Of a DNA stretch of 64,000 nucleotides, positions 10,312-12,976 are shown piece by piece (positions within the stretch are counted from its first letter, which is position 1; every line of letters starts with the position of its first letter). The notes beneath the pieces were generated by a model. That model ran no database searches and was not told where the DNA came from. It saw only the letters and a program-made list of their open reading frames with translations. Source of the stretch: Legionella cherrii (GTDB taxonomy: Bacteria; Pseudomonadota; Gammaproteobacteria; Legionellales; Legionellaceae); assembly GCF_900635815.1 (NCBI RefSeq), contig NZ_LR134173.1, forward strand, positions 2,326,001-2,390,000, read 5' to 3'. A program made the translations under genes and the position numbers.

Positions 10312-11067
10312 ATGAATTTAAGTTCTATCCGTATAATTTTAGTAGCAACATCTCATCCAGGTAATATAGGCTCAACAGCCAGAGCAATGAAAACAATGGG
10401 ATTAAGTTCACTTTATTTAGTACAGCCAAAATCTTTTCCTGATTATAAGGCAAAAGAAATGGCGGCTGGTGCCGATGATCTATTAGAGCATGCCATTGTT
10501 ACTGAAACTTTGGACGAAGCCTTGATTGGATGCCAGCTTATTCTGGGAACCAGTGCACGGCCAAGAGGTATTTCCTTACCCGGCTTAGTCCCCGCTTCTT
10601 GTGCGGACTTAATTAGTCAACACGCGGACAATACTCAAATTGCGATTGTATTTGGAAGAGAGCATGCAGGTCTTACCAACGAAGAACTGCTAAAATGTCA
10701 TTATCACATTAATATTCCAAGCAATCCCGAGTACAGCTCGCTCAATTTAGCCCAGGCAGTGCAGATTATTGCTTATGAATTGCGAATGAAATTATTAGCA
10801 CCTAAGGCTGAAGTGGCATTGCGGCAGGATGAGTATGCTACAGCAGATGAAATCGAGCAATTTTACGAACATCTAAGGGAAGTTTTTATTGAGATTCAAT
10901 TTTTAAAAACTTCAAATCCACGACGATTAATGCAGCGGGTACGACGTTTATTTAATCGTGTAAACTTAGAAAAAATGGAAGTTAATCTGTTACGAGGAAT
11001 GTTAAGTCAGGTACAAAAATCATTAGAATGGGCTAGGAAAAGAGGCTTAAGTGAACGGGATAATTAA
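10312..11067 (+). CDS. trmJ: tRNA (cytidine/uridine-32-2'-O-)-methyltransferase TrmJ
   Basis: A 251-residue SPOUT-class methyltransferase that 2'-O-methylates position 32 of certain tRNAs. The TrmH/SpoU motifs are clear: HPGNIGSTARAMKTMG at the N-terminus, IVFGREHAGLTNEEL in the middle and the knotted cofactor site INIPSNPEYSSLNLAQAVQI. The C-terminal helical extension typical of TrmJ follows. Its 3' end overlaps the iscS start by 17 bases, so it heads the reduced isc transcription unit, as trmJ sits beside isc in E. coli. Confidence 0.93.
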   Translation: MNLSSIRIILVATSHPGNIGSTARAMKTMGLSSLYLVQPKSFPDYKAKEMAAGADDLLEHAIVTETLDEALIGCQLILGTSARPRGISLPGLVPASCADLISQHADNTQIAIVFGREHAGLTNEELLKCHYHINIPSNPEYSSLNLAQAVQIIAYELRMKLLAPKAEVALRQDEYATADEIEQFYEHLREVFIEIQFLKTSNPRRLMQRVRRLFNRVNLEKMEVNLLRGMLSQVQKSLEWARKRGLSERDN

Positions 11068-12223
11068 AATACCAATCTATTTTGATTATATGGCAACAAC
11101 GCCTGTTGATCCGCGTGTCGTGGAGCGCATGATCCATTATCTGGGACCAGAAGGGGATTTTGGTAATCCTTCTTCTATAACCCATGAATATGGACGAATT
11201 GCAGCTCTTGCTGTAGATCACGCTCGTGCACAAGTTGCCAATTCAATTCATGCATCGGCACAAGATATAGTATTTACCTCGGGAGCCACAGAAGCTAATA
11301 ATTTGGCAATAATCGGCGCAGCACATTTTTACAAGAATAAAGGGAAGCATGTAGTTACTATGAGTACAGAGCATAAAGCGGTGCTCGATAGTTTTAACCG
11401 GTTGGAAAAAGATGGATTCGAGGTCACTTACCTTCATCCTGAACCCAATGGATTACTCGATCTGGAACAATTAGCTCAAGTATTAAGACCCGATACTATT
11501 TTGGTTTCCATCATGCATGTAAACAATGAAATCGGTGTGATTCAGGATATTGAGTCCATTGGTGCTTTATTACGTAATAAAGGAATCCTGTTTCATGTGG
11601 ATGCAGCACAGAGTGCAGGAAAAATTCCGATCGATTTGACGCGTCTTTCTGTCGATTTAATGGCACTTTCAGCGCATAAAAATTACGGTCCGAAAGGTGT
11701 TGGTGCCCTTTATGTCAGGCACAAACCCCGAATTCGTCTCCAACCACAAAGTTTTGGGGGCGGCCATGAAGGTGGGTTACGTTCGGGAACCTTGGCTACC
11801 CATCAAATTGTTGGTATGGGGGAGGCGTTCGAGTTAGCTGAACGGGTCCGAGAAGAGGAACAATCACGATTTTTAAAATATCGCCAGCACTTATGGGAGG
11901 GGATTAAACATTTGCCTGGTATTCAGCTCAATGGAGACAAACAAAAACGGATTGCAGGTAATCTGAATTTCAGTTTTGCTGGTTTAGATGGGGATTCCTT
12001 GTTGTTAGCCTTGAATGAGTTAGCAGTATCCACTACTTCAGCCTGCAGTTCTGCCAGTATTCAACCCTCCTATGTACTGAGAGAAATAGGGCTAAGCGAT
12101 GATTTAGCACAAAGTACTATAAGATTGTCCATAGGACGTTTTACTAAGGAAGAAGAAGTGGAGCACGCGATTCATGTTATTTGTACGCAAGTAACTCGAT
12201 TGCGCGAAATGTCGCCATCATGA
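11051..12223 (+). CDS. iscS: Cysteine desulfurase IscS-like
   Basis: A 390-residue PLP-dependent enzyme that takes sulfur from cysteine for Fe-S clusters and tRNA thiolation. It opens with IYFDYMATTPVDPRV (IscS: IYLDYSATTPADPRV), carries HVDAAQSAGKIPID, the PLP lysine in SAHKNYGPKG and the mobile-loop cysteine in TSACSSASIQPSYVL. It starts with GTG at 11051, preceded by AGAGG, and overlaps trmJ. Length is near E. coli IscS (404). Its stop overlaps the next start as ATGA, indicating translational coupling to the IscU-like gene. No iscR precedes it. It looks catalytically intact. Confidence 0.92.
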   Translation: MNGIIKIPIYFDYMATTPVDPRVVERMIHYLGPEGDFGNPSSITHEYGRIAALAVDHARAQVANSIHASAQDIVFTSGATEANNLAIIGAAHFYKNKGKHVVTMSTEHKAVLDSFNRLEKDGFEVTYLHPEPNGLLDLEQLAQVLRPDTILVSIMHVNNEIGVIQDIESIGALLRNKGILFHVDAAQSAGKIPIDLTRLSVDLMALSAHKNYGPKGVGALYVRHKPRIRLQPQSFGGGHEGGLRSGTLATHQIVGMGEAFELAERVREEEQSRFLKYRQHLWEGIKHLPGIQLNGDKQKRIAGNLNFSFAGLDGDSLLLALNELAVSTTSACSSASIQPSYVLREIGLSDDLAQSTIRLSIGRFTKEEEVEHAIHVICTQVTRLREMSPS

Positions 12224-12597
12224 TATATAATAAAATAGTACAAGATTGTTTTTTTTCACCTAGACATGTGGGCGTTATTGATTTAAGTGAGCGTTTTACA
12301 GTCGTTGTTAAAAACAACCAAAAAGGCCAAGGACTTATTGAACTTTACATGCAGTGTAATTCAGATGGTACAATTGTACGAGCTTGCTTTAGAACGAATG
12401 GTAACCCTTATATTATTGCAAGTTTGGAATGGTTATGCAGGCAGCTGGAAGGGCATACTACTCATACTGTCCCGCAAATTGATTACCAGCTCATTGTTAA
12501 AGAATTAGATATCCCTGTTGCTCAGTACCCTATAGCATTAAGAATTATGGATGTTTTTAAAGAAGCATTGCTTTTAATAAAAGATAAATCGAATTGA
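12220..12597 (+). CDS. IscU-like protein lacking all Fe-S ligand cysteines
   Basis: A 125-residue protein that aligns with IscU (128) along its whole length: MIYNKIVQDCFFSPRHVG against MAYSEKVIDHYENPRNVG, then SDGTIVRACFRTNGNPYIIAS against DEGIIEDARFKTYGCGSAIAS. By hand alignment the three conserved cluster ligands (E. coli Cys37, Cys63, Cys106) and Asp39 are all missing; the local sequences are NNQKGQG, NGNPYI and QYPIALRI. The LPPVK motif read by HscA is also gone (IPVAQ), matching the absence of hscA here. The start ATG overlaps the iscS stop. It cannot assemble clusters in the usual way. It may be a regulator or partner of IscS, or a decaying relic; the intact frame and coupling argue for a retained role. 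Confidence 0.75.
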   Translation: MIYNKIVQDCFFSPRHVGVIDLSERFTVVVKNNQKGQGLIELYMQCNSDGTIVRACFRTNGNPYIIASLEWLCRQLEGHTTHTVPQIDYQLIVKELDIPVAQYPIALRIMDVFKEALLLIKDKSN

Positions 12598-12610
12598 GAG
12601 GTAATATAAA

Positions 12611-12976
12611 ATGAGTGTCGTCATGCATCATGTAGAAAGTGCAGTACCTGAAATCAGTTTTACTGACGCAGCGATAAAACATGTAGTGTCTTATTTGCAG
12701 AAAAACCCTGAATATACGGGAATCCGTTTATCAGTAAAAAAAACGGGTTGTTCTGGTTTATCTTATGTCGTGGATTATGTACTAGCTCCCCAAGATAGCG
12801 ATTTGAAACTTGCTTTGACTGAAAATTATGTTGTATGCATTGATAAGTCCAGTTATCCCTTTTTAAAAAACATGAGTGTTGATTATGTAAAACAGGGCTT
12901 AAATTATAAATTCATTTTCAACAATCCGAATCAGACAGGTCAATGCGGATGCGGGGAAAGTTTTACAGTGGATTAG
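12611..12976 (+). CDS. iscA: A-type iron-sulfur carrier (IscA/ErpA-like)
   Basis: A 121-residue A-type carrier that receives Fe-S clusters from a scaffold and passes them to apo-proteins. All three cysteine ligands are present: GCSG at about residue 46 and CGCGESF near the C-terminus. The middle matches the family (ISFTDAAIKHVVSYL, RLSVKKTGCSGLSY). It follows the IscU-like gene by 13 bases and ends the operon; hscB, hscA and fdx, which follow iscA in E. coli, are absent. Whether it is IscA or ErpA proper cannot be decided by eye. Confidence 0.85.
   Translation: MSVVMHHVESAVPEISFTDAAIKHVVSYLQKNPEYTGIRLSVKKTGCSGLSYVVDYVLAPQDSDLKLALTENYVVCIDKSSYPFLKNMSVDYVKQGLNYKFIFNNPNQTGQCGCGESFTVD

What the first reader, a model, noticed from the sequence alone, without database searches (positions are those of the whole stretch)
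11051..12976. Reduced ISC locus with an IscU homologue stripped of its ligand cysteines
Gene order suhB / trmJ-iscS-IscU-like-iscA matches E. coli, but iscR, hscB, hscA and fdx are missing. The IscU-like protein (12220-12597) aligns over its full length yet lacks Cys37, Cys63, Cys106, Asp39 and the HscA-binding LPPVK motif. The frame is intact and translationally coupled to iscS (ATGA). An IscS paired with a non-cluster 'IscU' could serve sulfur transfer to tRNA or another acceptor, or regulate IscS. Loss of hscA and of its recognition motif together is coherent and argues against simple sequencing damage.
Basis: partly seen in the sequence, partly recalled or inferred. Interest (0 to 1): 0.75.

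Follow-up and report, generated by a model that had tools for sequence, protein, structure and literature searches.

The report
Ligand-less IscU kept beside IscS
In Legionella and its relatives, the protein that normally holds newly built iron-sulfur clusters has lost its metal-holding cysteines but is still conserved next to its sulfur-supplying partner enzyme, which suggests it has become a docking part rather than a cluster builder.

The parts
9381..10166 (-). suhB-like inositol monophosphatase, divergent neighbour
   Evidence: PF00459 219.9 bits
10312..11067 (+). trmJ-like SpoU methylase, overlapping the iscS start
   Evidence: PF00588 102.5 bits; overlap read
11051..12223 (+). iscS, cysteine desulfurase, 390 aa, without the E. 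coli 387-404 tail
   Evidence: NF010611 587.1 bits, cut-off 548; tail missing
12044..12046 (+). codon of the IscS active-site cysteine (E. coli Cys328)
   Evidence: Sequence; alignment
12197..12217 (+). remaining C-terminal segment of IscS (E. coli 379-385), part of the IscU footprint
12220..12597 (+). IscU*, ligand-less IscU-derived protein, 125 aa, start overlapping the iscS stop as ATGA
12328..12330 (+). Gln37 at the site of E. coli IscU Cys37
12403..12405 (+). Asn62 at the site of E. coli IscU Cys63, in the conserved GNP loop
12532..12534 (+). Ile105 at the site of E. coli IscU Cys106
12436..12438 (+). Cys73, new conserved cysteine (E. coli position 74; Cys in 75 of 78)
12611..12976 (+). 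iscA, A-type carrier with its three cysteines intact
   Evidence: PF01521 63.4 bits; C35, C99 and C101 in 103 of 103 adjacent IscA

Best explanation
IscU* is a ligand-less descendant of IscU that still docks at the IscU site of IscS and works as a cluster-free docking subunit, not as a scaffold. Cluster assembly itself has passed to SUF. IscU* is expected to hold the IscS persulfide loop in its IscU-facing state and most likely couples IscS to the neighbouring IscA, whose cluster cysteines are intact. Shown here: descent from IscU, loss of ligands, purifying selection, absence of HscA/HscB/Fdx/IscR, adjacency to iscA and fused frames. Inferred from comparison: docking on IscS (about 0.85). Inferred more weakly: the adaptor role towards IscA (about 0.4).
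For: Purifying selection: median dN/dS 0.15 over 55 usable of 57 pairs. Four columns are invariant in 78 relatives, Tyr3, Phe11, Pro64 and Ala68; three of them are IscS-contact positions (contacts from passages of PMC2854127). Listed contact positions are less variable than the rest, 1.18 against 1.84 bits, p 0.018. On IscS, the published IscU footprint is conserved with IscU* and eroded without it: segment 379-385 scores 12 to 33 in 78 of 78 loci with IscU*, and under 12 in 41 of 45 without; footprint without the tail p 1.8e-4, Cys loop 7e-4, TusA footprint 0.09; ten nearer rows without IscU* against ten with, p 0.004. Over 26 Foldseek ranks the best matches are IscU, the first 13 in complex with a desulfurase. 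iscA adjacent in 78 of 78; fused IscU*-IscA in L089, L154 and P0123.
Against: No complex was modelled or measured. Contact Lys42 of E. coli IscU is Asp or Glu in 62 of 78 and Lys103, whose reversal abolished binding in E. coli, is Gln in 43 and Arg in 22. The IscS tail beyond 388 is missing in all 78. Four of 45 loci without IscU* keep the IscS segment (L096, L099, L104, L155). On a supported tree only 4 independent pairs exist, so the sign test cannot reach significance. In 25 loci iscA stays beside iscS without IscU*, so IscA does not need it there. One fusion junction (L089) holds a run of A, where assembly error is possible.
Confidence: 0.5

Rival explanations
1. IscU* only modulates IscS. 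By sitting on the IscU site it sets desulfurase activity or keeps other acceptors off, with no role towards IscA.
For: The same docking evidence. In E. coli, IscU and TusA occupancy of IscS is proposed to direct sulfur flow (passages of PMC11302665).
Against: Does not explain adjacency to iscA in 78 of 78 loci or three fused proteins, though operon adjacency alone is weak.
Confidence: 0.28
2. IscU* has new chemistry: the conserved new cysteines (E. coli positions 10, 47, 57, 74) take sulfur or bind a metal.
For: Cys74 in 75, Cys47 in 68, Cys10 in 56 and Cys57 in 48 of 78; all four in 29 of 78.
Against: They are spread over helix 1, the ends and middle of two strands and helix 2 by the model's secondary structure, no distances could be measured, 2 of 78 have none of the four, and such substitutions may be core packing.
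Confidence: 0.1
3. IscU* replaces TusA as a relay to tRNA thiolation.
For: TusA was not found in this genome, and most E. coli TusA-contact residues of IscS are not kept in the family.
Against: 6 of 12 sampled genomes with IscU* have TusA and 0 of 6 without it do, the opposite of replacement.
Confidence: 0.06
4. IscU* is a slowly decaying relic without function.
For: It evolves faster than its neighbours (dN/dS 0.15 against 0.06) and has been lost repeatedly: at least 4 changes forced by supported branches.
Against: dN/dS stays well under 1 in all usable pairs (0.08 to 0.43), the frame is intact in 78 loci, and the IscS footprint tracks its presence.
Confidence: 0.04

Closest known systems
IscU (TIGR01999; E. 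coli IscU, human ISCU2)
   Same: Descent, length, fold, place between iscS and iscA, IscS-facing residues Tyr3, aromatic 11, Lys/Arg59, Gly62
   Different: No ligand cysteines, Asn-Pro in place of Cys63-Gly64, no LPPVK, no HscA/HscB/Fdx partners, partner IscS without its tail
SufU (TIGR01994)
   Same: Same fold family; present separately in the SUF operon of this genome
   Different: IscU* forms its own clade outside SufU, lacks the SufU insertion and its cysteines, and lies in the isc locus
Degenerated A-type domain of NfuA (passages of PMC8593673)
   Same: A cluster-carrier domain that lost a ligand and is kept for targeting
   Different: Another fold, always part of one fusion protein with a working Nfu domain; here the scaffold is the degenerate one and is usually a separate protein
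Solved IscS chain 7mhv
   Same: Near-identical to the IscS of L080, which lies beside an IscU*; ends at ..HELSPL
   Different: Listed as a cysteine desulfurase, one chain; I saw no partner. The tool did not show its organism

Membership tests
IscU cluster scaffold | Sequence descent and fold of IscU | tested here: met
   TIGR01999 matched by 52 of 52 relatives scanned, though under its cut-off in the window protein
IscU cluster scaffold | Three ligand cysteines (37, 63, 106) | tested here: not met
   0, 1 and 1 of 78; none in the window protein
IscU cluster scaffold | Asp39 | tested here: not met
   Leu in the window protein; Asp in 22 of 78
IscU cluster scaffold | LPPVK motif and HscA/HscB partners | tested here: not met
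   IPVAQ here; HscB and HscA not found in this genome
IscU cluster scaffold | Residues that contact IscS | tested here: inconclusive
   Tyr3, Phe11, Lys/Arg59, Gly62 kept; Lys42 and Lys103 changed
IscU cluster scaffold | Binds IscS and carries a cluster | not testable with these tools
   Needs experiment
SufU | SufU descent (TIGR01994) and cysteines | tested here: not met
   15.4 bits against a cut-off of 92.5; separate clade
SufE/CsdE sulfur acceptor | Acceptor cysteine on the desulfurase-facing loop | tested here: not met

The most novel reading that the evidence does not exclude
IscS, IscU* and IscA form a three-part machine in which the dead scaffold bridges the desulfurase to the A-type protein, so that IscA receives sulfur on IscS and acts as the site of cluster building or repair. 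That would be a layout of Fe-S supply different from ISC, SUF and NIF, with intermediate stages still visible in living species.
Probability: 0.25. Interest if true: 0.85.

Novelty: new variant of a known kind. Interest (0 to 1): 0.6.

Why it matters
IscU's cysteines define one of the most conserved machines in biology. A family-wide, selected IscU without them separates what IscU does to IscS by docking from what it does as a scaffold. Two deep branches each keep a different single ligand, and the partner surface on IscS erodes in most lineages that lost the protein, so the family records how an ISC system is dismantled. Database names such as 'iron-sulfur cluster assembly scaffold protein' are probably misleading here. 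My searches of the held library for IscU, IscS or nifU with Legionella or Legionellales listed no paper about it; most subscription papers are not held.

Tried and rejected
Sequencing damage or pseudogene: rejected. A hidden canonical IscU: NifU_N searches of 112 and 140 family genomes gave, besides IscU*, only 58-89-bit matches; the 30 fetched lie beside a SufS-like gene, so I read them as SufU, the others were not inspected. That model missed very divergent IscU* beside iscS in G003, G020, G027 and G088, so an IscU* moved elsewhere in a genome that I scored as lacking it is not excluded. I first read loci without adjacent iscA as having lost IscA; one search shows two A-type matches in 17 of 18 genomes, including two (G017, G034) of three such genomes in that set, so there it may only have moved. 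TusA replacement: rejected. The order-level search returned this family only, so class-level loci served as outgroups. The first tree (124 rows, quick) was weak: supported branches force only 1 change. The second used 36 of 78 rows with IscU* and 35 of 45 without (eight long-branched and two contig-end rows left out). Other rows dropped: L112 as truncated and loci whose IscS repeats another exactly, 148 loci to 123. Eight IscS places were not fetched (G061, G084, G136, G048, G038, G046, G075 and the second of G059); 6 of its 80 genomes had no IscS match and were not pursued. Alignment A1 used 33 of 52 proteins and A2 52 of 122. Distances between the new cysteines could not be measured, as no coordinates are given. 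Rows in the entropy tests are related and the set without IscU* is more diverse, so p values are guides only.

Full report
What is there. The window lies in a 3.73 Mb one-contig genome. Relatives of the IscU-like protein that carry an organism name are Legionella, Fluoribacter or Legionellaceae, apart from one named only 'bacterium'. The locus reads suhB (divergent), trmJ, iscS, IscU*, iscA; trmJ overlaps iscS, and iscS overlaps IscU* as ATGA. E. coli has the same order, with iscR between trmJ and iscS and with hscB-hscA-fdx-iscX after iscA.

It has no IscU cluster site. In 78 non-redundant IscU* aligned to E. coli IscU, Cys37 is present in 0, Cys63 in 1 (L073) and Cys106 in 1 (L074); none has two. 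Asp39 is kept in 22. L073 and L074 are the deepest rows with IscU* in the better tree; one row without it (L108) is deeper still. Each of the two deep rows keeps a different single ligand, as stepwise loss would leave. In place of Cys63-Gly64 there is Asn (66) or another residue, then Pro (78 of 78). New cysteines occur at 74 (75 of 78), 47 (68), 10 (56) and 57 (48); all four in 29.

It is under selection. In 57 pairs of close relatives, median dN/dS is 0.15 for IscU* (55 usable pairs, 0.08 to 0.43), 0.063 for IscS (47) and 0.065 for IscA (49). The estimated IscU* start lies 1 or 4 nt inside the iscS stop in 64 of 78 loci.

The rest of ISC is gone. HscB: 1 weak match in 104 genomes, none here. 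HscA over cut-off 0 of 18, Fdx 0 of 18, IscR over cut-off 0 of 18. E. coli rang in all four controls. A suf operon (regulator, sufB, C, D, S, U, T) lies at about 201.5-207.6 kb of the genome, with a SufU that has its cysteines. In a class-wide sample, canonical IscU over the cut-off was found in 130 of 281 genomes; the four members of this family in the sample were under it.

IscS has changed too. In 78 of 78 rows with IscU* nothing aligns to E. coli 389-404; in rows without it only stray residues do. This includes L080, whose IscS is near-identical to the solved chain 7mhv. Passages of Shi et al. 2010 (PMC2854127) give the IscU contacts on IscS as 309-316, 347, the end of helix 11 and 379-391, and report that IscS without 376-404 does not bind IscU. 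So the remaining IscS keeps only the first part of that helix, and any docking must be altered.

The old IscU footprint tracks IscU*. I sorted 123 non-redundant loci: iscS-IscU*-iscA 78, iscS-iscA 25, iscS with neither beside it 18, contig end 2. Segment 379-385 scored against E. coli averages 22.8 (12 to 33) with IscU*, -2.4 in iscS-iscA loci and -14.4 with neither. Four of 45 rows without IscU* reach 12 (L096, L099, L104, L155); none of 78 with it is lower. Over IscS, the positions whose variability differs most are 379, 376, 334, 312, 315, 332, 346, 311, 380 and 381. The footprint gives p 1.7e-8 with the tail and 1.8e-4 without it, the Cys loop 7e-4, helix 366-378 1e-3, the TusA footprint 0.09, a control stretch (100-110) 0.28. 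Rows are related and the group without IscU* is more diverse (baseline 0.34 bits), so these are guides. On a tree of 81 rows with outgroups, supported branches force at least 4 changes of IscU* presence. In the 4 independent pairs on supported branches the segment goes the same way in 3.3 on average and never the other way; so few pairs cannot reach p 0.05.

On the IscU* side, Tyr3, Phe11 and Pro64 are invariant, and contact positions are on average less variable (p 0.018), but Lys42 is Asp or Glu in 62 of 78 and Lys103 is Gln in 43 and Arg in 22. The E. coli charge reversal K103E abolished binding. This counts against an unchanged interface.

The tie to IscA. iscA is adjacent in 78 of 78 loci with IscU*, and its three cysteines are kept in 103 of 103 adjacent IscA. 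Three proteins carry both in one frame: L089, L154 and P0123, with different junctions. L089 and L154 belong to different genus codes, and L150, a near relative of L154 in the tree, is unfused. The L089 junction holds a run of A, so assembly error is possible there; the L154 junction shows none. Against a strict tie, 25 loci keep iscA beside iscS without IscU*.

Mechanism. Best supported: IscU* docks on IscS at or near the IscU site and presents the Cys loop in its IscU-facing state, but cannot take sulfur on the usual cysteines. Because it lies beside iscA in all loci seen and is sometimes fused to it, its likeliest job is to couple IscS with IscA. A parallel is NfuA, whose degenerated A-type domain serves in targeting (passages of PMC8593673). 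The main rival is pure modulation of IscS (compare passages of PMC11302665). The human counterpart of Tyr3, Tyr35, drives ISCU2 dimerisation (passages of PMC8617193); that Tyr35 equals position 3 follows from the alignment, so IscU* may also dimerise.

Novelty. Nine searches of the held library listed no paper that, from titles, abstract starts and the passages seen, treats a ligand-less IscU in this family. Because the scaffold-defining ligands were tested and are missing, I do not file it as an IscU scaffold; I call it IscU-derived.

Noticed in passing
L201:6206-7694 (genome C1 about 205.7-207.2 kb), outside the window: sufB of this genome reads as two overlapping frames, both matching SufB; two relatives (L208, L209) have one 496-aa frame at the matching place, taken as sufB by position only. 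Assembly error or a real break; not mended.
   Followed up: partly
L089:2652-3422, L154:1398-2216, P0123: IscU* and IscA fused in one reading frame in three sources with different junctions.
   Followed up: yes
P0129: A 169-aa IscA with an IscU*-like start (MMYN...) before it and most of IscU* missing; may be a remnant.
   Followed up: no
window:14856-15210: RNase P RNA, class A, 335 bits; the open frames listed across it (14826-15155 and 14864-15100) are probably spurious.
   Followed up: partly
window:15403-17934: 843-aa reading frame without a Pfam match at E 0.01.
   Followed up: no
window:13099-14310: Adenosine-deaminase-like protein, PF00962 51.5 bits.
   Followed up: no
genomes: TusA over cut-off in 6 of 12 sampled genomes with IscU* and in 0 of 6 without; missing in the window's genome.
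   Followed up: partly
L102 (G011) and L176 (G059): IscS matches with one TAA inside the matched stretch.
   Followed up: no
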